This document shows positions 3,762-48,215 of a DNA stretch of 64,000 bases, piece by piece. Positions within the stretch are counted from its first letter, which is position 1; every line of letters starts with the position of its first letter. The notes beneath the pieces were generated by a model. The model ran no database searches and was not told the DNA's origin. It saw only the letters and a program-made list of their open reading frames with translations. Source of the stretch: Ancylobacter vacuolatus (GTDB lineage: Bacteria > Pseudomonadota > Alphaproteobacteria > Rhizobiales > Xanthobacteraceae). The position numbers and the translations under genes were made by a program. The DNA is taken from assembly GCF_030813595.1 (NCBI RefSeq), contig NZ_JAUSUH010000010.1:124001-188000 (forward strand), given 5' to 3'.

Positions 3762-3786
3762 GGAACCGCTGCCGGCTCCGCACGTT
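3762..3786 (+). promoter_or_regulatory. EcfG (general stress sigma) promoter upstream of PRC-barrel gene
   Basis: GGAAC at 3762-3766 and CGTT at 3783-3786 are separated by exactly 16 nt, matching the alphaproteobacterial EcfG consensus GGAAC-N16/17-CGTT. The site points toward the PRC-barrel ATG 34 nt downstream, which leaves a short leader carrying the GGGAGG ribosome-binding site. Confidence 0.75.
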
Positions 3787-3819
3787 GCCCCTGCGAGACT
3801 GTCAACATGGGAGGCCAAC

Positions 3820-4203
3820 ATGCAGACGACGCAGCAGAATGTCGACGCGCGCGAAACCCGCACGCTGATCGGCAGCGACAAGGTGGAAGGCACCGCCGTC
3901 TACCGCCCGAATGGCGACCGCATTGGCGGCATCGAGCGGGTGATGATCGACAAGCTGACCGGCCAGACCGCCTATGCGGTGATGAGCTTTGGCGGGTTCC
4001 TCGGCTTCGGCGAGGACTATTACCCGCTGCCCTGGTCGCTGCTCAAATATGACGAGACCCTCGACGGCTATGTCGTGGATCTCACCGAGGAGCAGCTCAC
4101 CGGCGCGCCGCACCACGCCAGCTCGGACGAGCGCTCGTGGCAGGACCGCGAATGGGGCCGCAAGGTCGACGATTATTACAACGTGCCGCCCTACGTCATC
4201 TGA
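3820..4203 (+). CDS. PRC-barrel domain protein
   Basis: A 127-residue soluble protein with a single PRC-barrel domain (about residues 15-90; GTAVYRPNGDRIGGIERVMID, then the FGGFLGFGEDYYPLPW block). PRC-barrel proteins bind RNA, ribosomal proteins or photosynthetic and stress factors; the partner is unknown here. The ATG at 3820 has GGGAGG six bases upstream. An open frame extends back to 3679 but would begin upstream of the EcfG-type promoter, so it is not used. A terminator follows the gene. The tail (WGRKVDDYYNVPPYVI) is common in stress-induced members from Hyphomicrobiales. Confidence 0.88.
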   Translation: MQTTQQNVDARETRTLIGSDKVEGTAVYRPNGDRIGGIERVMIDKLTGQTAYAVMSFGGFLGFGEDYYPLPWSLLKYDETLDGYVVDLTEEQLTGAPHHASSDERSWQDREWGRKVDDYYNVPPYVI

Positions 4204-4222
4204 CGCGGCACGCAGCATCACG

Positions 4223-4252
4223 GAACGGTCGGGCGCGAGCCCGGCCGTTTTC
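4223..4252 (+). terminator. Rho-independent-type terminator after PRC-barrel gene
   Basis: The arms AACGGTCGGGC and GCCCGGCCGTT surround the loop GCGA, with one bulged base, and TTTTC follows. It begins 20 nt past the stop codon. Confidence 0.6.
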
Positions 4253-4269
4253 GTGTGGCCAAACGCGGC

Positions 4270-4464
4270 TCAGCTCGCCACTTCCTGCGTGGTGACGACC
4301 ACGACGGCGTCGGGAACGTTCTTCTTGAGGGAGTCGATGGCGGCGAGTGCCGAAGCCTTGGCCTTGTAGCCCTCGGATGAAAACATCGGCTCGCCATTCG
4401 AGGCCCGGAAACGGAACCGGAACTCGCCCGCCTTGTCCTTGTAGACTTCAAATTTGTAGGCCAT
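4270..4464 (-). CDS. YegP-type DUF1508 protein
   Basis: A 64-residue protein with one DUF1508 unit: YKFEVYKDKAGEFRFRFRAS followed by GEPMFSSEGYKAKASALAAI. This is the short beta-beta-beta-alpha fold seen in YegP of E. coli, which has two copies. The ATG at 4464 was chosen for the GGGGAGG upstream; a 13-residue in-frame extension has no such site. It lies 67 nt beyond the lepA stop on the same strand and could be read from its transcript. No function is established for the family. Confidence 0.85.
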   Translation of the reverse strand: MAYKFEVYKDKAGEFRFRFRASNGEPMFSSEGYKAKASALAAIDSLKKNVPDAVVVVTTQEVAS

Positions 4465-4531
4465 GGGCTGCCTCCCCCTCGTTGAGGAGGAGGATGTCAG
4501 CACGAAACGCCGGCCTTGGGTAGCGCGCGGC

Positions 4532-6337
<1,806 letters not shown>

Positions 6338-6438
6338 GTCGGGCGGGATAGCATTGGCGCCGTTACGCCACAAGGCGGCGCCTTGCATGCAGGCGGCCCT
6401 TCGACCACATTCGCGCGGCCTGTCGCCAAGGAGCCCCC

Positions 6439-7074
6439 ATGCCTGAACTCAAGGTCGCCATCGTTCCCGTCACCCCGTTCCAGCAGAACTGCTCCATCGT
6501 CTGGGACGAGACCACCAAGCGGGGGGCGGTGATCGACCCGGGCGGCGACCTGCCCCGCATCCTCGCGGCGCTGGAAGAGCTGGAGGTGACAGCGGAGAAG
6601 ATCGTGCTCACCCACGGCCATATCGACCATGCCGCCGGCGCGGCAGAACTGGCGGAAACGCTGAAGATTCCGGTGGAGGGCCCGCATCAGGGCGACAAGT
6701 TCCTGCTCGACAATCTGCCCGCCGATGGCGTGCGTACCGGCATTCCCGGACGTCCCGTCACCCCCGGCCGCTGGCTGGAGGAAGGCGATGCGGTCGATAT
6801 TGGTGGCGTCGCTTTCGAGGTGCTGCATGTGCCCGGCCACACGCCCGGCCATATCGTGCTGGTCAGCCGGGAGAACAAGCTCGCCATTGTCGGCGACACG
6901 CTGTTTCAGCGCTCGGTGGGGCGCACCGATTTCCCCTATGGCGACGGGCCGCTGCTCATCAAGGGCATCAAGGAGAAGATTCTCCCCCTCGGCGACGCCT
7001 TCACCGTGCTGCCCGGCCATGGCAACGCCACCAATATCGCGCTGGAAAAGCGCACCAATCCGTTTTTGCGCTGA
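6439..7074 (+). CDS. Metallo-beta-lactamase-fold hydrolase, YcbL/glyoxalase II-like
   Basis: A 211-residue cytosolic protein with the full metal-binding set of the MBL fold: [10 protein letters not shown] near residue 59, HVPGHTPGH near 130, [13 protein letters not shown] near 153 and the C-terminal LPGHGN His. Such single-domain proteins hydrolyse thioesters such as S-lactoylglutathione or related compounds; it lacks the C-terminal substrate domain of true GloB. It starts at an ATG with AAGGAG upstream and is divergent from lepA. Confidence 0.88.
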
Positions 7075-7121
7075 GCGGGGCGCTGCGGCGAGGACCGTCA
7101 GGACGGGGCACTCCCCTCCCG

Positions 7122-7216
7122 CCGTCATCCCGGCCGGAGCGCAGCGGAGAGCCGGGATCGCGCCGCGATTGGCCTGTGATCCCGGATCGCGCCGAGGACG
7201 CGTCCGGGATGACGCG
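7122..7216. repeat. Palindromic intergenic repeat (GTCATCCCGGC type)
   Basis: The element begins GTCATCCCGGCCGGAGC and ends GTCCGGGATGACGC, with internal GCCGGGATC and GATCCCGG arms, giving a long imperfect palindrome. Relatives lie at 8137 and 38498. Confidence 0.75.
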
Positions 7217-7293
7217 CGCGCCACGAAACTGTGACTCGCCCTGACGCAGGGGAGCGTCGATGATGCCCGAGACGCCAGCCCGGAGCCTCAGCC

Positions 7294-8130
7294 ATGCAGT
7301 GCCCCCTGCCGCGTATCACCCCTCTCGGCCCGGCCCTGTTCCTCGGCCTCGCGGCGCTGTTCGGCACCACGCCAGCCCTTGCCCAGGCGGAGCGATGCCC
7401 GAAACTGGTGGCGGACAATCCCTTCCTGCAGCGCCTCGCCCCGCGCGCGCTTCCCGCCGCCTATGTCGGCCCGCGCGAGGTGGGGCTGACCTATATTGGC
7501 CACTCCACCTTCCTGATCGAGACCGCCGGCGGCGTCACCGTGGCCACCGACTATAACGACTATGTCCGCCCCTCGGTCGTGCCGCGCGTGGCCACCATGA
7601 ACCGGGCGCATTCGACGCATTACTCGCTCAACCCCGATCCCGGCATCGAGCATGTGCTCAAGGGCTGGCGCGACGACCGCGATCCCGTGCATTACGATCT
7701 CGACATCGGCGATCTCTGGGTCGGCAACCTCCAGACCAATATCCGCGACTGGCAGGGCGGCACCATCCAGAACGGCAACTCGATCTTCGTGTTCCGCGCC
7801 GCCGATCTGTGCATCGCCCATCTCGGCCATCTGCACCACACGCTCACCCATGAGGATATCGGCGCGCTCGGACGGCTCGACGTGGTGCTCGCCCCGGTCG
7901 ATGGCAGCTACACGCTCGACGTCGACGGCATGATCGAGGTGCTCAAAGCGCTGGAGGCGCCGGTCATCATTCCGATGCACTATTTCAACGAGGGCACGCT
8001 CGACAATTTTCTCGCCCGCTTCGCCGGCCGCGACTACGCGATCGAGCGGCGCGAAAGCGCCGAGCTGGTGCTCTCGCGCGAGACGCTGCCGCGCAAGCCG
8101 ACGGTGATCGTGCTGCCGCCGGGCGGTTGA
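7294..8130 (+). CDS. Exported MBL-fold hydrolase, UlaG-like
   Basis: A 278-residue protein with a cleavable signal peptide (hydrophobic stretch to TPALAQA). The rest is an MBL-fold domain of the UlaG/L-ascorbate-6-phosphate lactonase type: YIGHSTFLIET, the conserved ATDYNDYVRP metal region, a central HLGHLHHTL and a C-terminal IIPMHYF. Several canonical HxHxDH positions are shifted or replaced, as in other members of this branch. Export suggests a periplasmic substrate, which cannot be named. It stands alone between two repeat elements. Confidence 0.8.
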   Translation: MQCPLPRITPLGPALFLGLAALFGTTPALAQAERCPKLVADNPFLQRLAPRALPAAYVGPREVGLTYIGHSTFLIETAGGVTVATDYNDYVRPSVVPRVATMNRAHSTHYSLNPDPGIEHVLKGWRDDRDPVHYDLDIGDLWVGNLQTNIRDWQGGTIQNGNSIFVFRAADLCIAHLGHLHHTLTHEDIGALGRLDVVLAPVDGSYTLDVDGMIEVLKALEAPVIIPMHYFNEGTLDNFLARFAGRDYAIERRESAELVLSRETLPRKPTVIVLPPGG

Positions 8131-8136
8131 AAGGCA

Positions 8137-8235
8137 CGCGTCATCCCGGCCGAAGCGAAGCGCAGAGCCGGGATCTCTTGATGCATGAAGCGCGGCGAGC
8201 GATCCCTGATCGGCCGTTCCGGCCGTGCGGGATGA
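8137..8235. repeat. Palindromic intergenic repeat (GTCATCCCGGC type)
   Basis: Starts GCGTCATCCCGGCCGAAGC and ends CGTGCGGGATGACG; same family as the element at 7122 and placed between convergent genes. Confidence 0.75.
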
Positions 8236-8237
8236 CG

Positions 8238-9533: not shown

Positions 9534-9545
9534 GGGGATTCCAGA

Positions 9546-11557: not shown

Positions 11558-11590
11558 GCGAGGGCTCCGGGCATGGCAAGTGACCAAGCG

Positions 11591-11692
11591 AGCATCCTTC
11601 GAGGCCCGGCTTCGCCGGGCACCTCAGGATGACGGTGCGCAGTGAGAACAACGTCATCCTGAGGTGCGAGCGCAGCGAGCCTCGAAGGATGC
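11591..11692. repeat. Nested palindromic repeat (GCATCCTTCGAGGC type)
   Basis: Outer arms GCATCCTTCGAGGC (11592-11605) and GCCTCGAAGGATGC (11679-11692) and inner arms CACCTCAGGATGAC and GTCATCCTGAGGTG form a near-complete cruciform. A small inner hairpin GCCCGGCTTCGCCGGGC lies in the left half. It sits inside the ABC transporter cluster. Confidence 0.8.
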
Positions 11693-11711
11693 CGATCGGG
11701 CACGGTCTCCA

Positions 11712-13286: not shown

Positions 13287-13317
13287 GGCGTTGCTTCCGG
13301 CCAGCGGCGAGAGGGCG

Positions 13318-13412
13318 TCAGGACCGGGCTTGGCCCGGCCATCCACGGCGTGGAGACGCGACGGCTTCATCAGGCGAAGACGTGGATCCCCGGGTCAAGC
13401 CCGGGGATGACG
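13318..13412. repeat. Palindromic intergenic repeat (CCGGGCTTGGCCCGG type)
   Basis: Two inverted repeats, ACCGGGCTTGGCCCGGCC and CCCCGGGTCAAGCCCGGGG, lie between the ATPase and binding-protein genes. Related to the elements at 1638 and 37670. Confidence 0.7.
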
Positions 13413-13436
13413 GCCGTTTGGGCGAGGCGTCACAGC

Positions 13437-13474: not shown

Positions 13475-13497
13475 GAAGGCGGCGCTGTCGTCCCGCC

Positions 13498-30565: not shown

Positions 30566-30590
30566 GGAACTCCGGAGGCGGGACGTCGTT
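30566..30590 (+). promoter_or_regulatory. EcfG promoter upstream of hdeD
   Basis: GGAAC (30566-30570) and CGTT (30587-30590) separated by exactly 16 nt, on the coding strand 42 nt ahead of the preferred hdeD start. Confidence 0.75.
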
Positions 30591-30632: not shown

Positions 30633-31211
30633 ATGGCTTCGCAAACGGGTTCCCTCTCTCCGACGCCGGGCGGCATGGTCGCCGGGCATCTTTCCGAGCT
30701 GCGCGCCAAATGGGGGTGGTTCGTCGCCCTCGGCCTGCTGATGGTCATGGCTGGTGCCATCGCGCTCGGCAATCTCGTGCTGAGCACCGTGGTGTCGGTG
30801 CTCTATATCGGCGTGATGATGGCCATTTCCGGCGGCGCCCAGGTCATCCATGCCTTCCAGGTCAAGACCTGGGGCGCCTTCGCCTTCTGGCTGCTCGACG
30901 GCCTGCTGTTTCTCGCCGCCGGCCTCGTCTGCATCTTCGTGCCGATGGTGGCGGCCGAGTTCCTCACCCTGTTCCTCGGCGTCTCGCTGATCATCGGCGG
31001 CGTGTTCCGCCTGGTCGCCGCCTTCCAGCTGCGCCCGGCCGATGGCTGGGGCTGGATCGCCTTCTCCGCCGCCATCGCCGTCCTGCTCGGCATCGAGATC
31101 ATCGCCGGCTGGCCGGTCAGCGGGCTGTGGGTGCTCGGCCTGCTGCTCGGCATCGACCTGGTGTTCAACGGCATCGCCGTGCTGTTCCTCGGCTTCGGCC
31201 TGAAGAAATAG
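30633..31211 (+). CDS. hdeD: HdeD-family acid-resistance membrane protein
   Basis: A 192-residue inner-membrane protein with six hydrophobic segments arranged as three hairpins, the HdeD/DUF308 pattern (GWFVALGLLMVMAGAIALGN, LLFLAAGLVCIFV, LGLLLGIDLVFNGIAVLF). HdeD of E. coli is part of acid resistance; its mechanism is not known. The ATG at 30633 has AGGA at eight bases; an in-frame ATG at 30618 is an alternative. An exact EcfG-type promoter lies upstream, which fits a stress role. The opgC-like gene begins 9 nt after the stop. Confidence 0.87.
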   Translation: MASQTGSLSPTPGGMVAGHLSELRAKWGWFVALGLLMVMAGAIALGNLVLSTVVSVLYIGVMMAISGGAQVIHAFQVKTWGAFAFWLLDGLLFLAAGLVCIFVPMVAAEFLTLFLGVSLIIGGVFRLVAAFQLRPADGWGWIAFSAAIAVLLGIEIIAGWPVSGLWVLGLLLGIDLVFNGIAVLFLGFGLKK

Positions 31212-31220: not shown

Positions 31221-32411
31221 GTGCCTGCGCCCCTCGCCGCGACGGCGGACACTCCCGTGGAGCCGGCCGAAAGGCCGGCCCCACCCGCCGCCTCCGGGCG
31301 CGACCTGCGGCTCGACCTGTTCCGCGGGCTGGCGCTGTGGTTCATCTTCCTGAATCACGTGCCCAACAATGTCGGCAACTGGATCACCAACCGCAATTTC
31401 GGCTTTTCCGACGCCACCGAGATCTTCGTCTTCATCTCCGGCTACACCGCCGCCATGGTCTATGGGCGCCAGCTCGAGTCCAGCGGCGTGCTCGTCACCT
31501 CGGCGCGCATCCTGCGCCGGGCGTGGCAGCTCTATATCGCCTTCATCTTCCTGTTCGTGATCTATCTCGCCGAAATCTCCTATGTCGTCGGCAGCTTCGA
31601 GAACCCGCTCTATGCCGAGGAAATGGGGGCGCTGCAGTTCCTCGCCGAGCCCGACGTGGCGCTGGTGCAGGCGCTGCTGCTGAAATTCCGCCCGGCCAAT
31701 ATGGACGTGCTGCCGCTCTATATCGTGCTGCTCGCCACCTTCCCGCCGATTCTGTGGGCGCTGAAGCGCTGGGCCGACGCGACGCTTCTCGCCTCCTTCC
31801 TGCTCTGGCTGGCGGTTCAGTTCCTCGGCTTCAACCTGCCCGGCTATCCCGACGACCGGATGTGGTTCTTCAACCCCTTCGCCTGGCAACTGATGTTCGT
31901 GTTCGGCGGCTGGTGCGGGCTCGGCGGCAGCGACCGGCTGGCGGGACTGGTGCATTCGCGGGTGGTGCTGGTGTTGTCAGTGTTCTATCTCGCGCTGTCA
32001 CTGGCGGTGGTGACGAGCTGGTACTGGCCGCCACTGGAAGGGCTGGTGCCGCCCGCCATCGGCGACATCATCTACCCCATCAGCAAGACCGACCTCTCGG
32101 TGCTGCGCTTCGTGCACTTTCTCGCGCTGGCGGTGGTGGTGGTCAGGCTGATACCGGTGCAGGCGCCGTTTCTGCGCTGGGAAGCCGTGAGGCCGCTGAT
32201 CATGTGCGGCCAGCACTCGCTGGAAGTGTTCTGTTTCGGCGTCTTCCTTTCTTTTGCCGCACATTTCGTGCTGAACGAGGTCTCCGGCACCGTGCTCATG
32301 CAAGTGACGATGAGCCTGTCCGGCATCGCCTTAATGGTAGGTCTCTCGGCATTGCTGTCGTGGTATGCTCGCGCCGAGCGCGACAGAGCGGCGCGCAAGA
32401 AGGCTGGCTAG
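31221..32411 (+). CDS. OpgC-domain membrane acyltransferase
   Basis: A 396-residue integral membrane protein with about ten membrane segments and the OpgC signature: RDLRLDLFRGLALWFIFLNHV, SDATEIFVFISGYTAAMVYG and MCGQHSLEVFCFGVFLSF. OpgC family proteins transfer succinyl or similar groups to osmoregulated periplasmic glucans. Starts with GTG 9 nt after hdeD. Two SGNH-type exported proteins follow at once, which suggests an acylation/deacylation module for a periplasmic polymer. The first 30 residues are Pro/Ala-rich and not conserved. No opgG/H genes are seen here. Confidence 0.85.
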   Translation: MPAPLAATADTPVEPAERPAPPAASGRDLRLDLFRGLALWFIFLNHVPNNVGNWITNRNFGFSDATEIFVFISGYTAAMVYGRQLESSGVLVTSARILRRAWQLYIAFIFLFVIYLAEISYVVGSFENPLYAEEMGALQFLAEPDVALVQALLLKFRPANMDVLPLYIVLLATFPPILWALKRWADATLLASFLLWLAVQFLGFNLPGYPDDRMWFFNPFAWQLMFVFGGWCGLGGSDRLAGLVHSRVVLVLSVFYLALSLAVVTSWYWPPLEGLVPPAIGDIIYPISKTDLSVLRFVHFLALAVVVVRLIPVQAPFLRWEAVRPLIMCGQHSLEVFCFGVFLSFAAHFVLNEVSGTVLMQVTMSLSGIALMVGLSALLSWYARAERDRAARKKAG

Positions 32412-32422
32412 CGCGGTTCGAC

Positions 32423-33205
32423 GTGGAACGCTGGATCTGGGGTATGTTGTTCGCAAGCGTCCTTTCCTTGGGCGGCGCCTCCGGCGTCGCGGCCGAGACG
32501 GGGAAGGTTTGCGCGGCGCCGTCCGCCCTCACGCGGGCGGGCTTCCCGCTGCCGCGCCTGGCGCGCTCGCTGGAGAAGAAGGAGCCGACCACCATCCTGG
32601 TGGTGAACAGCGCTACCACGACCAAGCGGCCGACTGATGCCGGCACAGCGGGCGGCAAGAGCGTCGCCCTGCGCAGCTTCCCGAGCTATATTGAGGAGAC
32701 GCTGCGCACCCGCTATCCCGAAGGCGGGGTGGTGGTGACGACCCGCAGCCAGCCGCGCGCCACCGCCGAAACCATTCGCGACGAACTCCCGGCGATGCTG
32801 GCGGAAGCCCGGCCGGCGCTGGTGATCTGGCAGACAGGCACCTTCGACGCCATCCTGGGCGCCGAGACCTCCATTTTCTCCGACGCGGTCGACACCGGCA
32901 TAGGCTATGTCCATGACGCTGGCGCCGATCTCATCCTGGTCAGCCCGCAATACAGCCCGCGCACCGATTTCGCCTTCGATATCGGCGCCTATACCAACGC
33001 GCTGCGCTGGGCGGCGCGTCTCGGCGGTGTGCCGTTCTTCGACCGCTACGCCATCATGCACTTCTGGGAAGACGAAGGCATTTTCGACTTCGACACCGCC
33101 CGCCCCTCCCCCTCGCTGTTCGACGATGTGCACAGCTGCATCGGCCGTCTTCTGGTCGGCATGATCGTCGATGGCGTCGACCTCAGAACGCTCGGTTCCC
33201 GCTAG
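32423..33205 (+). CDS. SGNH-fold exported protein lacking catalytic residues (probable pseudoenzyme)
   Basis: A 260-residue exported protein that aligns with the next gene's product across its length (SFPSYIEETLRTRYPEGG, PALVIWQTGTFDA, LILVSPQYSPR). The nucleophile position of block I is changed: GSSS in the paralogue reads NSAT here (Ala64). The block II Gly (NRG) is Ser and the block III Asn is Phe. The C-terminal Asp-x-x-His (DDVH) is kept. I infer loss of esterase activity and perhaps a binding role. GTG at 32423 gives a signal peptide; the ATG at 32444 is an alternative. Its stop is directly followed by the next ATG. Confidence 0.8.
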   Translation: MERWIWGMLFASVLSLGGASGVAAETGKVCAAPSALTRAGFPLPRLARSLEKKEPTTILVVNSATTTKRPTDAGTAGGKSVALRSFPSYIEETLRTRYPEGGVVVTTRSQPRATAETIRDELPAMLAEARPALVIWQTGTFDAILGAETSIFSDAVDTGIGYVHDAGADLILVSPQYSPRTDFAFDIGAYTNALRWAARLGGVPFFDRYAIMHFWEDEGIFDFDTARPSPSLFDDVHSCIGRLLVGMIVDGVDLRTLGSR

Positions 33206-34069
33206 ATGCACCTGCGCCTTCTCGCCCCCCTCGCCTTTTCCGCCCTCCTCGCCGCCGCGCAGCCGGCCGCCGCGCAGACGGTGATGCCGGCCAGTTGCCC
33301 GGCGGCGAAGACGCTGGCCAAGCTCAACGCCCCGCTCGCCCGCACCTCGGCCCGGCTGCGCGCCGGCGAGAAGGTGGTGATCGTCGCCATCGGCTCCTCC
33401 TCCACCGCCGGGGCGGGGGCGAGCGTGCCCGATGCCGCCTATCCCAACCGGCTGCAGGCGATGCTGCGCGAGCGCTTTCCCGCCGCCGATATCAGCGTCG
33501 TCAATCGCGGCATCAATGGGCAGGACGCACCGGAAATGCTGGCGCGCTTCGACACCGATGTCGCGGCGCTGAAGCCGACGCTGGTGATCTGGCAATCCGG
33601 GGTGAACGCGCTGTTCCGCGAGGGCGGCCTCGCCGCCGCTGACGCGCTGCTGCACGAGGCGATCGCCCGAGTGAAGGCGATCGACGCCGATCTCGTACTG
33701 GTCGACCCGCAATACGCCCCGCGCGTGCTCGCCGACGCCGATAGCGGGCCGATGGTCAACCTCATCGCCAAGGTGGCGGCGGAGGAAGGCGTCGCGGTCT
33801 ATCCGCGCTTCGCGCTGATGCGCGACTGGCACGAAAAGGCCTCGATGGGCTTCGAATCCTTCCTGTGGAAGGACCAGTTCCACATGAATGACTGGGGCTA
33901 TAACTGCTTCGCCCGCGACCTCGGCCGCGCCGTCGTCGCCAATATCGACTCGCAGCAGCGCTCCGCCGATGTGGGCGCGCCCGCCAAGCCGATCGCGGCC
34001 CAGTCGGTGACGGCGAAGCCGATCGCGGCTCCTGCCGCCCTGCCGGTGTCGGCCAGCGCGGCGCCCTGA
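33206..34069 (+). CDS. SGNH/GDSL hydrolase, exported
   Basis: A 287-residue protein with a signal peptide (LRLLAPLAFSALLAAAQP, cleaved near AAAQ). The SGNH blocks are intact: Ser65 in IGSSSTAG (block I), Gly in NRGINGQD (II), Asn in WQSGVNA (III) and Asp223/His226 in KDQFHMNDWG (V). An Ala/Pro-rich tail of about 40 residues follows. It is a periplasmic esterase, probably acting on acyl groups of a glycan given the OpgC-like gene before it. The ATG abuts the TAG of its paralogue. Confidence 0.88.
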   Translation: MHLRLLAPLAFSALLAAAQPAAAQTVMPASCPAAKTLAKLNAPLARTSARLRAGEKVVIVAIGSSSTAGAGASVPDAAYPNRLQAMLRERFPAADISVVNRGINGQDAPEMLARFDTDVAALKPTLVIWQSGVNALFREGGLAAADALLHEAIARVKAIDADLVLVDPQYAPRVLADADSGPMVNLIAKVAAEEGVAVYPRFALMRDWHEKASMGFESFLWKDQFHMNDWGYNCFARDLGRAVVANIDSQQRSADVGAPAKPIAAQSVTAKPIAAPAALPVSASAAP

Positions 34070-38497: not shown

Positions 38498-38595
38498 CGT
38501 CATCCCGGAAGGGCCGTCAGGCCCTGTCCGGGATCGTATGCCACCTGTCGAGCGCGCGATCCCGGCTCTGCGCTGCGCGCCGGCCGGGATGACGT
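38498..38595. repeat. Palindromic intergenic repeat (GTCATCCCGG type)
   Basis: Starts GTCATCCCGGAAGGGCC and ends GGCCGGGATGACG with internal GCGATCCCGGC; the same family as the elements at 7122 and 8137. It fills the gap between ettA and the tam remnant. Confidence 0.75.
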
Positions 38596-38601
38596 ACCCC
38601 C

Positions 38602-40257
<1,656 letters not shown>

Positions 40258-40608
40258 GTACCAAATTCCTGCGCTTCGGGCCGAGCCGAGATCGGGCCGC
40301 GAGGCCGCGGCGTCATGCGGTGTGGGTTGCGCGCTATGTAAACCGCGCACCGTTGAGCGGCAAGGCCGTCCCGCAAAGACCCGCCTATCTTATGGTTCCA
40401 CGCGGCGCAGGGGCGTCGCTCAGCGCGCCTGAACGGCGTCGCCCCGCCTGCGTTTACGGCCGGCCACGGGCGGGCCAATCGGCTTTTTCGCCCAAGGTAT
40501 TGGAACGCCTCTGTTCCTCGGGCGTTGACAGCTGCCGGCACGCACGCCGGGCGCAACTCACTATCTTCTTACCTCAAGAAGCCGGAACCGGGCGGGTATA
40601 CCGACAGC
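40258..40608. other. Divergent ettA/otsB intergenic region
   Basis: 351 nt without a gene. It holds the EcfG-type otsB promoter at 40502 and, on the other side, whatever promoter drives ettA, which I cannot identify with confidence. The open frame that starts at 40525 and runs into otsB begins inside the promoter and is not considered coding before 40609. No tRNA or repeat is seen. Confidence 0.5.
40502..40526 (+). promoter_or_regulatory. EcfG promoter upstream of otsB-GH15-otsA
   Basis: GGAAC (40502-40506), 16 nt, CGTT (40523-40526). The otsB ATG lies 82 nt downstream. Trehalose synthesis is a known output of the EcfG general stress response in Hyphomicrobiales. Confidence 0.8.
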
Positions 40609-41379
40609 ATGGCGACAGCACCAACCGAACCCCTCTCCCTGCTTCCCCGCCCCGACTGGGCTCTCTTCCTCGATATTGACGGTACGCTGATCGAGCACGC
40701 CGACCATCCCGAGGGCGTGAGCATCCCTACCGGCCTACCGGACCTGCTGGCGCAGCTGCAAGTGGCGCTGGACGGCGCGGTGGCGCTGGTTTCGGGGCGC
40801 ACCATCGACTGGATGGACCGCCGCTTCGCCCCCGCCCGCCTCGCCGCCTCCGGCCAGCATGGGGCCGAGGTGCGCCTTGCTCCCGACGCGCCCTCCGTGC
40901 CGATTCCCCTGCCGCGCTGGCGCCGACCGCTGGAAGAGGCGCTGAGCGCCGTCCTCGCCACCTGGCCCGGCGTGTTCATCGAGCACAAGCCGCTGTCGCT
41001 GGCGGTGCATTTCCGCGCCGTGCCGGATTTCGGCGAGGCGATCATGGACAAGGTGATGGAGATCGGCACCGGCATTGATGGCGGGGTCGAGTTTCTCAAG
41101 GGCAAATATGTCATCGAGGTCCGGCAGGCCGGCCGCAACAAGGGTACGGCGGTGGCCGAGCTGATGAACTCGGCGCTGTTCACCGGCCGCCGCCCGGTGT
41201 TTCTGGGCGACGATGTGACCGATGAGGACGGCTTCCGCGCCGTCCGCGCCGCTGGCGGCCTCGCCCTTGCCGTCGGCGCCCGCCCGACCGAGCAGGCCGA
41301 TTACAGGCTGGCCTCGCCGAGCGAGGTGCGCCGCTGGCTGACCGACCTTCCCAAGGCACTGGAGCGCGTGGATTCGTGA
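40609..41379 (+). CDS. otsB: Trehalose-6-phosphate phosphatase OtsB
   Basis: A 256-residue HAD-superfamily phosphatase that releases trehalose from trehalose 6-phosphate. The catalytic Asp pair is Asp22 and Asp24 in LFLDIDGTL. Later HAD motifs are ALVSGRTIDW, the Lys in RNKGTAVAEL and LGDDVTDEDGF. The cap-domain region contains GQHGAE. The ATG at 40609 fits the length of the family; the preceding frame lies within the promoter. It is first in the operon and its stop overlaps the GTG of the next gene by four bases (GTGA). Confidence 0.94.
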   Translation: MATAPTEPLSLLPRPDWALFLDIDGTLIEHADHPEGVSIPTGLPDLLAQLQVALDGAVALVSGRTIDWMDRRFAPARLAASGQHGAEVRLAPDAPSVPIPLPRWRRPLEEALSAVLATWPGVFIEHKPLSLAVHFRAVPDFGEAIMDKVMEIGTGIDGGVEFLKGKYVIEVRQAGRNKGTAVAELMNSALFTGRRPVFLGDDVTDEDGFRAVRAAGGLALAVGARPTEQADYRLASPSEVRRWLTDLPKALERVDS

Positions 41380-43172
41380 GCACCCATCTCGACCTGGCCG
41401 CCATCGGCAACGGCACCATCGCCGCGCTGATCGACCGCAACGGGCGCATCGGCTGGTGCTGCTGGCCGCGCATTGACGGCGACCCGGTCTTCTCCTCGCT
41501 GCTCGGCGGCGCCGAGCCGGAAGCCGGCTTCTTCGACGTGGTTCTGGAGGGGCAGGTCAAGGCGACGCGCCGCTACCAGACCAACAGCGCCATCATCGAG
41601 ACCATTCTGGAGAACGACCAGGGCGCCAAGCTGCGGATCATCGACTTCGCCCCGCGCTTCAAGCTCTATGACCGTATCTACCGCCCCGCCATGCTGGTGC
41701 GCCGCATCGAGCCGATCACCGGCATGTGCCGGGTGACGCTGCGCCTGCGCCCGCATTTCAACTGGGGCGAACAGCGGCCCGCGCCGGTGCGCGGTTCCAA
41801 CCACATGCGCTTTTCCGGCGACGACGTGACCCTGCGGGCCACCACCGACCTGCCCATCGTCTATGTGATGGAGGAGCGCCCCTTCGTGCTCAGCAAGCCG
41901 GCGACGCTGGTGCTGGGGCCGGACGAGCCCTTCCCCGCGAGCATTGCCGACACCACGCGCGGCTTCGAGGAGAAGACCCGCGAGTACTGGCACGAATGGG
42001 TGCGTTACCTCTCCATTCCCTATGAATGGCAGGACGCGGTGATCCGCGCCGCCATCTCGCTCAAGCTCTGCGCCTTCGAGGAGACCGGCGGCATCGTCGC
42101 CGCGCTCACCACCTCGATTCCCGAGGCGCCGCACTCGATCCGCAACTGGGACTACCGCCACTGCTGGCTGCGCGATTCCTATTTCACCGTGCGGGCGCTG
42201 AACATGCTCGGCGCTACCCGCACCATGGAAGACTATATCCGCTACCTCACCACGGTGATCGCCTCCGAGCCCTCCGGCCGGCTGGCGCCGGTCTATTCGA
42301 TCGTTCCAGGCACGCCGCTGGAGGAGCGCTTCGCCCCGGCGCTTTCCGGCTTCCAGGGCATGGGGCCGGTGCGGGTCGGCAACCAGGCCGGCGAGCAGGT
42401 GCAGAATGACGGCTATGGCCATGTCGTGCTGGCGGCGGCGCAGATGTTCTTCGACGAACGCCTGCCCAACCGCGGCGACAAGGCGCTGTTCGAACTGCTG
42501 GAAGGGGTTGGCGCGCGGGCGGTGGAATTCGCCTTCGAGCCCGACGCCGGCCTGTGGGAGTTGCGCGGCAAGCGCCGGGTGCACACCTTCTCGGCTGTCA
42601 TGAGCTGGGCCGCCTGCGACCGGCTGGCGCGCATCGCCCGGGTGCTGGAGCTGCCCGAGCGGGCGGAATTCTGGACCGAGAACGCCAACGAGATCCGTAC
42701 CCGCATCATGTCCTTCGCCTGGGACGAGACACGCGGCTCCTTCGTCGACGCGGAGGAAGACGGCCAGCTCGACGCCAGCCTGCTGCTGCTGGCGGAACTG
42801 GGCTTCGTGCGGCCGGACGATCCGCGCTATGTCGCCACGGTGGAGACCATCGGCCGCGAGCTGAAGCGCAACGGCTATCTCATGCGCTATGCCGGCGAGG
42901 ATGATTTCGGCCTGCCGGAAACCTCCTTCACCATCTGCTCGTTCTGGTATGCCGGCGCGCTCGACCTGATCGGCCGCCGCGACGAGGCGCGCGAGATGTT
43001 CACCAGCCTGCTCGCCCGGCGCAACCCGGCGGGGCTGCTGTCCGAGGACATCGACAACCAGACTTTGGAACTGTGGGGCAACATCCCGCAGACCTATTCC
43101 ATGGTCGGCCTGATCGACACCGCCATGCGGCTGTCGAAGACCTGGGAGGAAGCCTTTTGGCGCGGCTCGTAA
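41376..43172 (+). CDS. Glycoside hydrolase family 15 protein (trehalase/glucoamylase-like)
   Basis: A 598-residue protein with the GH15 (alpha/alpha)6 barrel. The N-terminal super-beta-sandwich starts AAIGNGTIAALIDRNGRIGW. The barrel signature NWDYRHCWLRDS follows near residue 263. Candidate catalytic Glu residues are in LPETSFTICSFW (about 513) and LLSEDIDNQTLE (about 557). GH15 enzymes of trehalose clusters, as in mycobacteria, are trehalases, so it may degrade trehalose; glucoamylase-like activity on other alpha-glucans is possible. It starts with GTG coupled to otsB and overlaps otsA by 16 nt. Confidence 0.9.
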   Translation: MSTHLDLAAIGNGTIAALIDRNGRIGWCCWPRIDGDPVFSSLLGGAEPEAGFFDVVLEGQVKATRRYQTNSAIIETILENDQGAKLRIIDFAPRFKLYDRIYRPAMLVRRIEPITGMCRVTLRLRPHFNWGEQRPAPVRGSNHMRFSGDDVTLRATTDLPIVYVMEERPFVLSKPATLVLGPDEPFPASIADTTRGFEEKTREYWHEWVRYLSIPYEWQDAVIRAAISLKLCAFEETGGIVAALTTSIPEAPHSIRNWDYRHCWLRDSYFTVRALNMLGATRTMEDYIRYLTTVIASEPSGRLAPVYSIVPGTPLEERFAPALSGFQGMGPVRVGNQAGEQVQNDGYGHVVLAAAQMFFDERLPNRGDKALFELLEGVGARAVEFAFEPDAGLWELRGKRRVHTFSAVMSWAACDRLARIARVLELPERAEFWTENANEIRTRIMSFAWDETRGSFVDAEEDGQLDASLLLLAELGFVRPDDPRYVATVETIGRELKRNGYLMRYAGEDDFGLPETSFTICSFWYAGALDLIGRRDEAREMFTSLLARRNPAGLLSEDIDNQTLELWGNIPQTYSMVGLIDTAMRLSKTWEEAFWRGS

Positions 43173-44578
43173 TCGTCTCGAACCGGGTGGCATCGCCCAA
43201 GGAGCGCGCCGCCAAGGCGGGCGGACTGGCGGTGGCCCTGCGCGAGGCGCTGAGCCAGCGTGGCGGGCTCTGGTTCGGGTGGAGCGGCGAGACCGAGATC
43301 AACCCGCCCGACACGCCCAAGGTGTTTCGTTCGGGCCGCGTCACCTATGCCCTGCTCAATCTCGACCCGGAAGACCAGCGCGCCCATTATGCCGGCTACG
43401 CCAATGGCACGCTGTGGCCGCTGTGCCATTACCGGCTCGGCCTGCTGACCTTCCGACGCGCCGACTGGGAAGGCTACCGGCGGGTGAACGAGCATTTCGC
43501 CCGGGCTCTGCTGCCGCTGCTCAAGCCGGACGACAACATCTGGGTGCACGACTATCATTTCATCCCGCTGGCGGCGGAGCTGCGCAAGCTCGGCTTCGCC
43601 GGACGGATCGGCTATTTCCACCACATTCCCTGGCCGACCCCGGAAGTCTATCTCAGCCTGCCCTCGCATGCGGCGTTGGTGGACGACCTCTCGCATTACG
43701 ACCTTGTCGGCCTGCAGACCGAGAACGACGTGCGGGCGCTGCTGACCTACATCTCCTCCGAGGTGCATGGCTGGATCGCCCCGGGCGGCACGGTGGGGCT
43801 GAAGGACCGGCGCTTCCGCGTCGCCGCCTACCCGATCGGCATCGATGCCGAGGCCTTCGTCAGCGATGCCCGGAAGTCGGTCGGCAAGGACGAGGAGCGG
43901 CGCCTCAATGAGAGCCTCGCCGGCCGCAGGCTGGCCGTGGGCGTGGACCGGCTGGACTATTCCAAGGGCCTGCCCGGCAAATTCGCCGCTTTCGGCGAGT
44001 TGCTGCGCAGCTACCCCGAGCACCGCTCCAAGGTGACGATGATGCAGGTGGCGCCGCTCTCGCGCAGCGAGGTGGCCGAATATCAGGCGCTGCGCCGCGA
44101 GCTGGAGGAGCTGGGCGGCGCGATCAATGGCGAATTCGCCGAATTCGACTGGGTGCCGCTTCGCTACCTCAACCGCCCGTTCCAGCGCGCCACGCTCGCC
44201 GCCATCTACCGGCGCGCCCTGGTGGGGGTGGTGACGCCGCTGCGCGACGGCATGAACCTCGTCGCCAAGGAATATGTCGCGGCGCAGGACCCGGAAGACC
44301 CGGGCGTGCTGGTGCTCTCGCGCTTCGCCGGCGCGGCCGACGAATTGAAGGGCTCGCTGCTGGTCAACCCCTACGACATTGAGGGCATGGCGGCGGCGAT
44401 GGACCGGGCGCTGACCATGCCGCTGGAGGAGCGCCGGCAGCGCTGGCGCACCAACATGGACAATGTGGAGACCAACACCATCCACCATTGGTGCCAGCGC
44501 TTCATCGACGAACTGACCAACGTCACCGACCAGTTCGGCCCCCCGGGCGACCAATGGGGCAATGCCCGGCCGCAGTGA
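43157..44578 (+). CDS. otsA: Trehalose-6-phosphate synthase OtsA
   Basis: A 473-residue GT20 glycosyltransferase that joins UDP-glucose and glucose 6-phosphate. It begins at TTG (43157), read as [12 protein letters not shown], with GGGAGGA six bases upstream, inside the end of the GH15 gene; this gives the family's usual N-terminus. Substrate-binding motifs are [25 protein letters not shown] and [14 protein letters not shown]. The order otsB-GH15-otsA puts synthase last, with translational coupling throughout. No other start fits the frame as well. Confidence 0.94.
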
Positions 44579-44661
44579 ACCGGAGCGGTGCTGGTCGAGC
44601 CAGATTGCCTTGGATAGGGGAGTCTGAGATTATCAGGACGCAACTCTAGTCGTCTGTGAAA

Positions 44662-45696
44662 ATGACACGTTATGGTTTTTGCGGCCTCAAGGTCATCGCC
44701 GGCTTCACCGCTGCGCTGGCATTTTCAACCCTGTTGGCCTTTGCGCAAACCGATGCCACGCCGCCATCGCCCCGCAAGGGGATCGTCATTTGGGACGTCC
44801 CGGCGTTCGATGCCCTGCCGGATGATGAGAATGGCCCGCTCGCCCGCTATGGCCGCTCCATCATCGAGGCCACTTACGCGCATATTGGGCCGGAAGCCGT
44901 CAATCCCGAAGCCCGTTATGCCGGTAATAATCTGGCCTGCGCCAATTGCCACCTGCACGCTGGACTGAAGAAATTCGGCCTTCCTTTGGTTGCAGCGTCC
45001 GCCGACTACCCCGCCTACAGCTCGCGGACCGGCACGGTCAGCTCGATCTTCGACCGGGTGAACCAGTGCCTGAAGCGCAGCATGAACGGACGGCCGATGC
45101 CGGAGGATGAGCGGCCGATGCAGGCGATCCTCGCCTACCTCAAGGTCCTCTCGACCCATATTCCGACCGAGGCGACGATCGTCGGTGCCGGAGCGGGGTC
45201 CATGCCGGAGATGGATCGCGCGGCGGACCCGTCGCGGGGGGCCGCGGTCTATGCCCACACCTGTGCGGACTGCCATCGCCGTGATGGCCTGGGCGTCCGG
45301 CGCAACGAGGCGCTGCCGAACATGGGCTATGCCGTCCCGCCCTTGTGGGGCCCGGACAGCTTCAACGATGGAGCGGGCACCGCGCGGCTGATCACGCTCG
45401 CCAACTTCGTCCATGACAACATGCCGAACGGGACTTCATGGATCGCCCCGACGCTCGCGCCGGAAGACGCCTGGGACGTGGCGGCATTCGTGCTGTCGCA
45501 ACCTCGGCCCCAACTGGCTGGGATTGATCGCGATTTCCCCGACCTGCTGCTGAAGCCGGTGGATGCGGGCTATCCGCCCTACGCCGACAGCTTCTCTGTG
45601 GAGCAGCATCGCTTCGGCCCCTTCGCCCCGATCCGGGCGGAAATAGCCCGGCTGAGGGAAACGCGCGGCGAGGTGCCCAATCCCAACAGCCCGTAA
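44662..45696 (+). CDS. TsdA-like dihaem cytochrome c (thiosulfate dehydrogenase candidate)
   Basis: A 344-residue exported protein with two c-type haem motifs, CANCH and CADCH. The first is followed about 40 residues later by a Cys in RVNQCLKRSMNG, at the position of the unusual axial Cys ligand of TsdA. The second haem has a candidate Met ligand in NFVHDNMPNGT. The signal peptide is FTAALAFSTLLAFAQ. TsdA oxidises thiosulfate to tetrathionate or reduces tetrathionate. The order of conserved residues fits, but activity is inferred. Start may be ATG at 44662 or GTG at 44656. It is monocistronic after otsA. Confidence 0.75.
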   Translation: MTRYGFCGLKVIAGFTAALAFSTLLAFAQTDATPPSPRKGIVIWDVPAFDALPDDENGPLARYGRSIIEATYAHIGPEAVNPEARYAGNNLACANCHLHAGLKKFGLPLVAASADYPAYSSRTGTVSSIFDRVNQCLKRSMNGRPMPEDERPMQAILAYLKVLSTHIPTEATIVGAGAGSMPEMDRAADPSRGAAVYAHTCADCHRRDGLGVRRNEALPNMGYAVPPLWGPDSFNDGAGTARLITLANFVHDNMPNGTSWIAPTLAPEDAWDVAAFVLSQPRPQLAGIDRDFPDLLLKPVDAGYPPYADSFSVEQHRFGPFAPIRAEIARLRETRGEVPNPNSP

Positions 45697-45792
45697 CTGG
45701 GACGGCATGACGGGCGAGGCCGGGAACGTCCGGGAGTGCCGCGGGATGAAGACGGCTGCATTTAATCGGCATCCCACGACCTCGGACTCCAC

Positions 45793-46707
45793 CTAAACCC
45801 CCGCCTCATGTGGTCCGATCAGCCGCCCGACATCCGGCAGCCAGCGGATCGCCATGGCGAAGCGCTTGGTGGCCCCCGGCGCGATCAGCGACAGGCCCGG
45901 CTTCTCCGTGAACTCGGCAGGGCCGTCCTCGGGCGAGGCATAGCCGGCCCAGGGCTCGATGCACAGGAATGGCGCGCCGGGCTTCGACCACAGGCCGAGA
46001 TGCGGCATGTCGGGGAAGGCGACTTCCAGCCCCGGCTCGCCCGGCACGCCGAAGCGCACATGGTGCGAGCGCAGATCGAGGAAGATCAGGGCGTCGCGCT
46101 CGAACAGCGCATCGGTCGGCTCGAGGATCGCGTCCACCGCCGGGTTCGGCTCGGTGGCGGTGGAGAGCAGGCCGCCCACCGGGCGGTGGATGGCTTCGGC
46201 TTCCGCTTTTTCGAACACCAGCCGGTGATCGTCCCGCGTGCCGCCATAGGGCAGCGGCCAGCGGAAGGCCGGGTGGAAGCCGACGCTCGCCGGCAGCTCC
46301 CCCTCGCCGGTATTGGCCACCTCGACCTCAATGGTCAGCGTCGCCTCGGCCAGCCGGTAGGTGACGGTGAGCGAGAACGGGAACGGGTACTGCTTGCGCG
46401 TCTCCTCGTCATCGTGAAGCGCAAGCCGGACGACCTGCTCCGTCGCCTCCTCAAGGGTGAAGGCGCGGCGGCGGGCGAAGCCGTGCTGGGCCATCGGGTA
46501 GACCTTCCCGTCATGCAGCAGTTGGTCGTTCGGCAGCCGCCCGACAATGGGGAAGAGCAGCGGCGCGCGGCCGGTCCAGAAGGCCGGGTCGCCGTTCCAC
46601 AGCAGGTCATGCCCGTGCCGGTCCCGCAAAGCCACCATCTCAGCGCCCTGGGGCGAGATCTCGACCTCAAGGAATTCCGATTTCAGCCGCACCGCACCCT
46701 CGCTCAT
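45793..46707 (-). CDS. Aldose 1-epimerase-family protein (YihR/LacX-type)
   Basis: A 304-residue galactose mutarotase-like beta-sandwich protein. Family marks are ISPQGAEMVALRDRHGHDLLW, LPASVGFHPAFRWPLP with the catalytic His, and the later LGLWSKPGAPFLCIEPWAGYA containing the catalytic Glu region. It converts anomers of a sugar or a phosphorylated or sulfated sugar. The ATG at 46707 has GGGGA upstream. It is convergent with the cytochrome gene and unlinked to any sugar operon here. Confidence 0.85.
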   Translation of the reverse strand: MSEGAVRLKSEFLEVEISPQGAEMVALRDRHGHDLLWNGDPAFWTGRAPLLFPIVGRLPNDQLLHDGKVYPMAQHGFARRRAFTLEEATEQVVRLALHDDEETRKQYPFPFSLTVTYRLAEATLTIEVEVANTGEGELPASVGFHPAFRWPLPYGGTRDDHRLVFEKAEAEAIHRPVGGLLSTATEPNPAVDAILEPTDALFERDALIFLDLRSHHVRFGVPGEPGLEVAFPDMPHLGLWSKPGAPFLCIEPWAGYASPEDGPAEFTEKPGLSLIAPGATKRFAMAIRWLPDVGRLIGPHEAGV

Positions 46708-46805
46708 ACCAATCCCCGTCTCGACTTCGCCCAAGATCAGGTCTAACGGGACCTTGCGGATAAACGATTCCGCGCGCCCGCCACCCTCATCGTCCGGTTC
46801 CCATC

Positions 46806-48182
46806 ATGGCCCAGACTCTCGGCCCTGTCGCCGCGCTCCTGCTCGGCGTGTTCTTTCTGGTAACCGGGAGCGGCCTGCAGAACACGCTGCTACCGCTGCG
46901 CGGCGCCTTCGAGGGCTTCAGCGCGATCAATCTCGGCATATTGGGGTCGAGCTATTATCTCGGCTTCGTCGTCGGCTGCCTCGCCGTGCCGCATCTGGTG
47001 CGCCGCACCGGCCATATCCGCGCCTTCGCCGCCCTCACCTCCGGCGTGGTGGCGGCGATGATGGCGCATCCCTTGTTCATCGAGCCCTTCACCTGGTTCG
47101 CGCTGCGCACCGTCACCGGCTTCTGCTTCGCCGGGCTCTATCTGGTGATCGAAAGCTGGCTGAACGACCGCGCCACCAACCAGACGCGCGGCTTTGTCAT
47201 GAGCGCCTATGTCATCGTCGATTATGCCGCGCTCACCGCCGGCCAGATGATGATCACGCTCTACCCGGTGCGGGCCTTCGACCTGTTCGCCATCGCCGCC
47301 ATCCTGTTCTCGCTGGCGACGCTGCCGGTGGCCATCGCCTCCAGCAGCCAGCCGGCGCCGATCGAAACCGCGCGCATCCGCCTGCCGCGCCTGTTCAAGG
47401 CCGCGCCGGTGGCGATGGTCGGCTGCTTCGCCATCGGCCTCACCAATGGCTCGCTCTGGTCGCTGGGGCCGATCTTCGGCATCGGCCGGGGGCTGACCTC
47501 CGACGGCGCCGCGACCTTCATGAGCGCCGTCGTGGTGGCGGGCGCGCTGGCGCAATGGCCGATCGGCTATCTCTCCGACCGCATGGACCGCCGCCGCATC
47601 CTCGCCGCGTTGCTAGTGGGGGCGCTGCTGGCCGGGCTGGCGCTGGGGGCGCTGCCTTTCGACCTGCTCGGCCTCAGCCTGCTGGGCATGGTGTATGGCG
47701 CGCTCTCGCTGCCGGCCTATTCGCTCGCCGCCGCCCACGCCTATGACCGCACCGCCCCTTCCGAAGCGGTGGAGACGGCGGCGGGGCTGCTGCTGCTCTA
47801 TGGCCTTGGCTCGGTGGTCGGTCCGGCGCTGGCGGCGCTCGGCATGCAGCATTACGGGCCGGGCGCGCTGTTCTTCTTCACCGCCGGCGCCTATGGGCTG
47901 CTGCTACTGTTCGTGCTCTGGCGCATCCTGCTGCGCGAGCGAGGGCGGCAGATCGACACCAAGAGCGAGCCGATCGCCTCGGCGGCGACCGGCACCGTGC
48001 CCCGGCCGGACAAGGAGCGCAAAGAGGCGCCGCTGGCGCGGCTCAAGCGCTGGCGCCGCGCCACGTCGCCCGCTCCGGCCCGCCCTGCCGCGACCAAGCC
48101 CGCCCCCACGCCCGCACCGGAAAGCCCGGCTTCGGCCGAGGACTTCCCTTCGCCGCAGGACGGACGTTCCGACGGGGCCTGA
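46806..48182 (+). CDS. MFS transporter, YcaD type
   Basis: A 458-residue major facilitator protein with twelve predicted membrane segments. It starts MAQTLGPVAALLLGVFFLVT and shows GYLSDRMDRRRI, the A-like motif after segment 8 that marks this group, and PAYSLAAAHAYD. A charged and Pro/Ala-rich tail of about 75 residues follows the last segment (from RILLRERGRQ) and is not conserved. Substrate is unknown. The gene diverges from the epimerase gene. An EcfG-type promoter for the next gene lies just after its stop. Confidence 0.87.
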   Translation: MAQTLGPVAALLLGVFFLVTGSGLQNTLLPLRGAFEGFSAINLGILGSSYYLGFVVGCLAVPHLVRRTGHIRAFAALTSGVVAAMMAHPLFIEPFTWFALRTVTGFCFAGLYLVIESWLNDRATNQTRGFVMSAYVIVDYAALTAGQMMITLYPVRAFDLFAIAAILFSLATLPVAIASSSQPAPIETARIRLPRLFKAAPVAMVGCFAIGLTNGSLWSLGPIFGIGRGLTSDGAATFMSAVVVAGALAQWPIGYLSDRMDRRRILAALLVGALLAGLALGALPFDLLGLSLLGMVYGALSLPAYSLAAAHAYDRTAPSEAVETAAGLLLLYGLGSVVGPALAALGMQHYGPGALFFFTAGAYGLLLLFVLWRILLRERGRQIDTKSEPIASAATGTVPRPDKERKEAPLARLKRWRRATSPAPARPAATKPAPTPAPESPASAEDFPSPQDGRSDGA

Positions 48183-48190
48183 GCGGCACG

Positions 48191-48215
48191 GGAACCGATG
48201 CAGCACCCGTGCGTT
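48191..48215 (+). promoter_or_regulatory. EcfG promoter upstream of DUF1328 gene
   Basis: GGAAC (48191-48195), 16 nt, CGTT (48212-48215), followed after 39 nt by the ATG of the DUF1328 gene. It starts nine bases beyond the stop of the MFS gene. Confidence 0.75.

What the first reader, a model, noticed from the sequence alone, without database searches (positions are those of the whole stretch)
3762..48215. Four exact EcfG-type promoters mark a stress regulon: PRC-barrel gene, hdeD, otsB operon, DUF1328 gene
GGAAC-N16-CGTT occurs at 3762, 30566, 40502 and 48191, each in an intergenic region, on the coding strand and 35-85 nt before a start codon. A 9-base match with two spacings should occur about once by chance in 64 kb of both strands. 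All four are before genes with plausible stress roles, and all have the same 16-nt spacing.
Basis: partly seen in the sequence, partly recalled or inferred. Interest (0 to 1): 0.75.

Follow-up and report, generated by a model that had tools for sequence, protein, structure and literature searches.

The report
Four general-stress promoters in Ancylobacter
Four short DNA switches in front of stress genes are very probably real promoters of the well-known alphaproteobacterial general stress response; this is an ordinary but solid case, with a few possibly new target genes, including an envelope-sugar gene cluster and a light-sensing kinase.

Summary
Confirmed and supported. GGAAC-N16-CGTT lies exactly at 3762, 30566, 40502 and 48191, 33-82 nt before genes for a PRC-barrel protein, HdeD (DUF308), OtsB and a DUF1328 protein. 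A fifth exact N16 site (7771-7795, -) is antisense inside a gene. Shuffles expect 0.30. The genome (nearest named records: Ancylobacter) has an ecfG-nepR operon divergent from phyR, with an exact site before each. In 69 orthologous loci from 18 congeners, 58 carry an exact N16/N17 site in the 220 nt upstream; only 2 more occur in those 239 kb. Genome-wide, 49 of 69 exact N16/N17 sites lie in intergenic DNA within 250 nt upstream of a gene, a class holding 6% of window positions. So these are four of about 50 predicted promoters. The common 16-nt spacing is not meaningful: orthologues use 16 or 17, as published for Methylobacterium. Possibly new: hdeD-opgC-SGNH-SGNH as a stress output, and an EcfG-type site before a phytochrome-HWE kinase 5.8 kb left of the window. 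Expression is untested.

The parts
3762..3786 (+). EcfG-type promoter (GGAAC-N16-CGTT) of the PRC-barrel gene
   Evidence: exact in 15 of 17 genus orthologues (own included), one mismatch in the other 2; motif columns 0.93 agreement, spacer 0.40
3820..4203 (+). PRC-barrel protein, 127 aa
   Evidence: PF05239, 45.4 bits; start 33 nt after CGTT
30566..30590 (+). EcfG-type promoter of the hdeD operon
   Evidence: exact in 19 of 19 genus orthologues (own included), 11 N16 and 8 N17; motif columns 0.98, spacer 0.63
30633..31211 (+). hdeD (DUF308 membrane protein), 192 aa
   Evidence: PF03729, 76.9 bits; this start is shared with the nearest relatives
31221..32411 (+). opgC-like protein; probably on the same transcript (inferred)
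   Evidence: PF10129, 454.2 bits; opgC follows hdeD in 19 of 19 genus loci
32444..33205 (+). NonGDSL/SGNH-type protein 1; probably on the same transcript (inferred)
   Evidence: PF25182, 245.8 bits; seen after opgC in 15 of 19 genus hdeD loci, which end about there
33206..34069 (+). NonGDSL/SGNH-type protein 2; probably on the same transcript (inferred)
   Evidence: PF25182, 171.7 bits; same order in G010
40502..40526 (+). EcfG-type promoter of otsB-GH15-otsA
   Evidence: exact in 16 of 19 genus orthologues (own included), one mismatch in the other 3; motif columns 0.97, spacer 0.51
40609..41379 (+). otsB, trehalose-6-phosphate phosphatase
   Evidence: PF02358, 108.7 bits
41376..43172 (+). GH15 / trehalase-like glycoside hydrolase
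   Evidence: PF00723, 175.2 bits; PF19291 TREH_N, 38.8 bits; follows otsB in 19 of 19 genus loci
43187..44578 (+). otsA, trehalose-6-phosphate synthase
   Evidence: PF00982, 411.9 bits; same order in G010
48191..48215 (+). EcfG-type promoter of the DUF1328 gene
   Evidence: exact in 12 of 18 genus orthologues (own included), one mismatch in 3, none in 3; alignment test failed
48255..48428 (+). DUF1328 small protein, 57 aa
   Evidence: PF07043, 29.0 bits, cut-off 27
7771..7795 (-). fifth exact N16 match, antisense inside a gene (7294-8130, +); probably chance, not counted as a promoter

Best explanation
The four sites are promoters read by RNA polymerase carrying the general-stress sigma factor EcfG. 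Without stress, NepR holds EcfG. Under stress a histidine kinase phosphorylates PhyR, PhyR~P takes NepR away, and EcfG recognises GGAAC (-35) and CGTT (-10) 16-17 nt apart, starting transcription just before the PRC-barrel gene, hdeD-opgC-SGNH-SGNH, otsB-GH15-otsA and the DUF1328 gene. Shown here: the motif, its position, its conservation, and the presence of all three switch proteins with the same motif at their own genes. Inferred from the published EcfG mechanism: the partner switch, stress induction, the start sites and the operon extents.
For: Motif above chance (5 seen, 0.30 expected). EcfG (NF009192, 347.9 bits, cut-off 307), NepR (PF18557) and PhyR (PF22029, PF22233, Response_reg) at one locus, with exact sites before nepR-ecfG and before phyR. 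Conservation: 58 of 69 congener loci have an exact site in the 220-nt upstream window, 0.07 expected from the rate elsewhere in the same loci. Free alignments: for 3 of 4 genes the motif columns beat all 194 slid placements. Genome-wide: 49 of 69 exact sites lie upstream of a gene, binomial 4e-43 against a 6.3% background measured on the window with my own gene finder. For 32 of 52 own sites compared, the downstream gene is the reciprocal best hit of a gene downstream of an exact site in G010. Same motif published for R. etli EcfG1 (GGAAC-N16-CGTT; PMC3892343, passages) and, with a 16 or 17 spacer, for M. extorquens (GAAC-N16,17-C/GGTT; PMC4814048, passages).
Against: No expression or transcription-start data. 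The DUF1328 site is altered or lost in 6 of 18 genus genomes and its alignment test failed (75 of 194 slid placements score at least as high). Outside the genus the otsB site is mostly absent: 0 exact in 6 loci of 5 order relatives, and 8 exact of 60 alphaproteobacterial loci, 5 of the 8 from Ancylobacter or its close kin, against 1 of 18 others. Genome totals alone are weak: the reversed-pattern control gives 29 against 45 (N16) and 16 against 24 (N17), and 11 of 12 genomes outside the genus have fewer sites than that control, while 19 of 19 in the genus have more. Two other EcfG-like ECF sigma genes (L382, over the NF009164 cut-off; L008, under it) could share the sites. The sigma-70 scan found none in the four upstream regions, but about none was expected, so it says nothing.
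Confidence: 0.94

Rival explanations
1. Another ECF sigma factor, such as the EcfG-like L382 or L008 product, reads some or all of the sites, instead of EcfG or together with it (so this does not exclude the best explanation).
For: 10 of the 12 sigma-factor matches were scanned with NCBIfam (not the in-window rpoD-like gene, nor C2:323165). L382 passes NF009164 and L008's best hit is the same model; both also match the models hit by EcfG, more weakly. In M. extorquens several EcfG paralogues share promoters (PMC4814048, passages).
Against: Of the 10 scanned, only the L005 product passes NF009192 and NF009199, and it alone sits with NepR and PhyR and has the motif at its own promoter. That these models stand for EcfG is my recalled reading.
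Confidence: 0.12
2. Chance matches: a short motif in GC-rich DNA that happens to precede genes.
For: Genome totals are only modestly above the reversed-pattern control (45 vs 29 for N16, 24 vs 16 for N17); the fifth window site looks like chance.
Against: Conservation at orthologous positions (58 of 69 against 0.07 expected) and positional concentration.
Confidence: 0.02
3. The four sites form a special stress island, kept together by selection, rather than being four ordinary regulon members.
For: Four sites in 64 kb against 0.64 expected (Poisson P 0.004 for one given window, taking 50 sites in the genome); same order over 47 kb in G010.
Against: 5.02 Mb holds about 78 such windows, so about a third of a window like this is expected by chance; gene order here may simply be inherited; in G012 the PRC gene lies elsewhere on the contig.
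Confidence: 0.08

Closest known systems
Rhizobium etli EcfG1 regulon (PMC3892343, passages seen)
   Same: Identical promoter motif GGAAC-N16-CGTT
   Different: Another genus; there 19 of 56 transcriptional units lowered in the mutant carried the motif. Its target genes were not compared one by one.
Methylobacterium extorquens EcfG regulon (PMC4814048, passages seen)
   Same: Closely similar motif with 16 or 17 nt spacer, GAAC-N16,17-C/GGTT
   Different: There six ecfG genes, none at the phyR locus and none with an EcfG-type promoter; here ecfG lies at the phyR locus and has an exact site before its operon
Bradyrhizobium diazoefficiens EcfG control of trehalose synthesis (PMC8092242, passages seen)
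   Same: otsA and otsB under EcfG
   Different: There otsCB-otsA with a proposed trehalose transporter OtsC; here otsB-GH15-otsA with a trehalase-like gene between
Sphingomonas melonis Fr1 EcfG regulon (PMC6599016, passages seen)
   Same: A PRC-barrel gene and a Ku gene are in its list of EcfG-dependent genes and have sites here
   Different: Motif written GGAAC-N17-20-GTT; the terms DUF1328 and HdeD occur 0 times in the text searched

Membership tests
EcfG-dependent promoter | -35 GGAAC and -10 CGTT with 16-17 nt spacer | tested here: met
   motif from PMC3892343 and PMC4814048
EcfG-dependent promoter | On the coding strand, a short distance before a gene | tested here: met
   33, 42, 82 and 39 nt
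EcfG-dependent promoter | Conserved at orthologous genes in relatives | tested here: met
   58 of 69 congener loci: hdeD 18 of 18, PRC 14 of 16, otsB 15 of 18, DUF1328 11 of 17; outside the genus mostly not
EcfG-dependent promoter | Transcription starts there and depends on EcfG/PhyR | not testable with these tools
   needs 5'-end mapping and mutants
Alphaproteobacterial general stress response | EcfG, NepR and PhyR present | tested here: met
Alphaproteobacterial general stress response | nepR-ecfG divergent from phyR, both with EcfG-type promoters | tested here: met
   exact sites at C11:82343 (-) and C11:82409 (+)
Alphaproteobacterial general stress response | HWE/HisKA2 kinase that phosphorylates PhyR | tested here: inconclusive
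   HWE_HK domain in the phytochrome; a stretch beside phyR (C11:83982-84635) resembles its kinase part; phosphotransfer not testable

The most novel reading that the evidence does not exclude
In Ancylobacter the general stress response has two branches for which I found no paper: (a) an envelope branch, hdeD-opgC-SGNH-SGNH, in which EcfG drives modification of periplasmic glucans; and (b) a sensory branch, in which EcfG drives a bacteriophytochrome with an HWE kinase and a receiver domain (C10:115518-118070, -), so that red or far-red light could feed back on PhyR. The exact motif precedes 6 of 8 close orthologues of that kinase, own included; the other 2 lack it even with one mismatch. The remaining 11 of 19 genus genomes have no close orthologue.
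Probability: 0.35. Interest if true: 0.5.

Novelty: new member of a known kind. Interest (0 to 1): 0.33.

Why it matters
It gives a set of about 50 predicted general-stress promoters, 32 of 52 compared being shared with one congener, for a genus where my searches of the open-licence library listed no study of this response (one paper, on another topic by its title and the start of its abstract, for Xanthobacter: none). It names testable possible new targets (the opgC operon, the phytochrome-HWE kinase). It also shows spacers of 16 and 17 nt replacing each other among orthologues of each of the four promoters while both boxes stay the same.

Tried and rejected
Fixed 16-nt spacing as a special feature: rejected, since orthologues use N16 or N17. 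Fifth N16 site at 7771 (-): inside a gene, rejected as a promoter. N15 site at 58656, 228 nt before the carbamoyl-phosphate-synthase-like gene: left as probable chance. The alignment test for the DUF1328 promoter failed, perhaps because its 220 nt hold the variable end of the gene before it; the exact-count test was used instead. The control on otsB loci of named genomes was weak: 8 of 60 alpha against 1 of 18 others, none with the reversed pattern in the same 350 nt; I assigned the classes by hand from record titles, L207 (the one hit among the others) is only called Proteobacteria, and 2 of 80 loci were too short. Stress-island idea: no more than weak clustering. Sigma-70 scan: uninformative. 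Rows dropped before counts: the 11 weaker PRC loci L091-L101 were not scanned; the genus counts leave out two distant hdeD paralogues in congeners (L070, L071; no site) and all out-of-genus rows, which are told in the report. The gene calls come from my own simple codon-bias finder trained on the window; it missed nepR, so that site is counted as 'other'. Reciprocal best hits were sought only among genes next to sites, so some may be paralogues (for example Ku, 33% with G010; 29%, 36% and 38% in three G012 pairs). Pfam was run on only 20 proteins downstream of sites outside the window, 2 of the 20 without a match. The many weaker kinase and receiver matches were not followed.
Full report
Observation. 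Dinucleotide shuffles expect 0.30, largest 2 in 100. Four of the five lie in intergenic DNA within 250 nt upstream of a gene on the right strand, a class that holds 6.3% of window positions by my gene finder (P 7e-5); the fifth is antisense inside a gene. The four genes are PRC-barrel, DUF308 (HdeD), trehalose-phosphatase (OtsB) and DUF1328 by Pfam.

Where it is. The window is C10:124001-188000 of a 5.02 Mb, 29-contig genome. The nearest named records by OtsB are Xanthobacteraceae bacterium 501b (96%), Ancylobacter rudongensis (92%) and A. polymorphus (90%), so the genus is most likely Ancylobacter (Alphaproteobacteria; inference).

The regulator. At C11:81-83 kb lie ecfG (NF009192, 347.9 bits, cut-off 307), nepR (PF18557) and, divergent, phyR (PF22029, PF22233 and a receiver domain). 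Between them are two exact sites, C11:82343 (-) before nepR-ecfG and C11:82409 (+) before phyR. Read by eye from the sequence, they end 54 (or 72) nt before the two possible nepR ATGs and 38 nt before a GTG that fits the start of phyR. PMC4814048 describes this arrangement as the most frequent one in Alphaproteobacteria (passages).

Footprint. In own plus 18 congeners, the exact motif (N16 or N17) precedes hdeD in 19 of 19, the PRC gene in 15 of 17 (2 with one mismatch; two congeners lack a close orthologue), otsB in 16 of 19 (3 with one mismatch) and the DUF1328 gene in 12 of 18 (3 with one mismatch, 3 with none; one congener lacks the gene). Leaving the own genome out, 58 of 69 loci have it in the 220 nt upstream, against 0.07 expected from the rate elsewhere in the same 239 kb, where only two sites occur, both just upstream of a gene that resembles the window's superoxide dismutase. 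In free alignments, agreement with the window at the nine motif columns is 0.98 (hdeD), 0.93 (PRC) and 0.97 (otsB), against 0.63, 0.40 and 0.51 in the spacers, and none of 194 slid placements reaches these values (their maxima are 0.88, 0.82 and 0.92); the DUF1328 alignment failed the test (0.48; 75 of 194). Of 62 exact sites, 44 are N16 and 18 N17, both spacings occurring for each of the four genes (otsB 15 and 1).

Outside the genus the picture is mixed: hdeD 0 of 4 rows, PRC 0 exact of 2 (one mismatch in both), otsB 0 exact of 6 rows from 5 genomes (one mismatch in 4), DUF1328 2 exact of 3. In named genomes, 8 of 60 alphaproteobacterial otsB loci (5 of the 8 Ancylobacter or its close kin) and 1 of 18 others have an exact N16-18 site within 350 nt. 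Control of these genes by EcfG is thus well supported within the genus and not shown as ancestral.

Genome-wide. There are 45 N16 and 24 N17 sites, against 29 and 16 for the reversed pattern. In 19 of 19 genus genomes the motif outnumbers that control and in 11 of 12 genomes outside the genus it does not; the control is not matched in dinucleotides, so position is the better test. By position, 49 of 69 own sites lie upstream of a gene, 12 inside genes and 8 elsewhere, one of the 8 being the nepR-ecfG site. In G010 it is 52, 15 and 9 of 76, and in G012 29, 21 and 14 of 64. Binomial probabilities against the window's 6.3% are 4e-43, 2e-44 and 2e-18. For 32 of the 52 own sites compared, the downstream gene has its reciprocal best partner downstream of an exact site in G010, and for 19 of 52 in G012; a few low-identity pairs may be paralogues. 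I ran Pfam on 20 proteins downstream of sites outside the window: they include a sigma-70-type factor (sigma-32 by NCBIfam), Ku, DJ-1/PfpI, a short-chain dehydrogenase, an alpha-amylase family enzyme, DUF892, two further PRC-barrel proteins, a PLD-like protein and a mechanosensitive-channel protein; 2 of 20 had no match.

Mechanism. The partner switch is published (recalled in detail; outline seen in the listed abstract starts and passages): stress-activated HWE/HisKA2 kinase, PhyR~P, NepR removed, EcfG freed. Expected outputs here: trehalose from OtsA and OtsB, as shown for Bradyrhizobium (PMC8092242, passages), and membrane or envelope proteins (HdeD, OpgC, DUF1328, PRC-barrel), whose roles are inferred from family names. 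The GH15/trehalase-like gene that follows otsB in 19 of 19 genus loci would put a possible trehalose-breaking enzyme under the same promoter; its substrate is untested.

Novelty. Promoter type, regulator and several targets are known. In the open-licence library my searches listed no paper for EcfG with sigma and HdeD, OpgC with general stress response and Alphaproteobacteria, phytochrome with EcfG, or Xanthobacter with EcfG and PhyR, and one, on another topic, for Ancylobacter with general stress response. DUF1328 occurs in none of the 15 papers listed (of 51). A wider search on periplasmic glucans listed 8 of 108 papers, one of them with that term, on Salmonella mobile elements. One on bacteriophytochrome, general stress response, HWE and PhyR listed 12 of 18; only PMC8092228, on a Brucella blue-light kinase, holds the word bacteriophytochrome among the 12 (not read). 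Subscription papers are not held, so this is no proof of absence.

Verdict. A correct and ordinary finding: four very probable members of the EcfG regulon. The most interesting leads are the opgC operon and the phytochrome-HWE kinase.

Noticed in passing
G000 C10:115518-118070 (-), L385; site at C10:118219-118243, 5.8 kb left of the window: Bacteriophytochrome (PAS_2, GAF, PHY) with HWE kinase and receiver domain; an exact GGAAC-N16-CGTT lies before 6 of 8 close genus orthologues, own included.
   Followed up: partly
window 48434-49111 (-), site-like stretch at 49150; L132, L137: A superoxide dismutase gene next to DUF1328. In two congeners (G010, G007) a similar gene has an exact EcfG-type site; here the corresponding place has GGAAC-N15-CGAT.
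   Followed up: partly
window 41376-43172: A GH15/trehalase-like gene sits between otsB and otsA in one apparent operon; otsB-GH15 adjacency holds in 19 of 19 genus loci.
   Followed up: partly
window 31221-34069: An opgC-like gene and two tandem NonGDSL/SGNH-type genes follow hdeD.
   Followed up: partly
L017 (G000 C2:445664-445688, +): One of two sigma-32 factors (NF005693, over its cut-off) has an exact EcfG-type site 138 nt before its start, and so do its reciprocal best partners in G010 and G012, suggesting EcfG-to-RpoH wiring.
   Followed up: partly
window 49259-49390 (+): A 43-aa reading frame (MSTETLFFVAA...) has look-alikes near DUF1328 in at least 13 of 18 genus rows, own included; not identified.
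   Followed up: no
L005:772-969 (+): A second DUF1328 gene lies near the ecfG locus.
   Followed up: no
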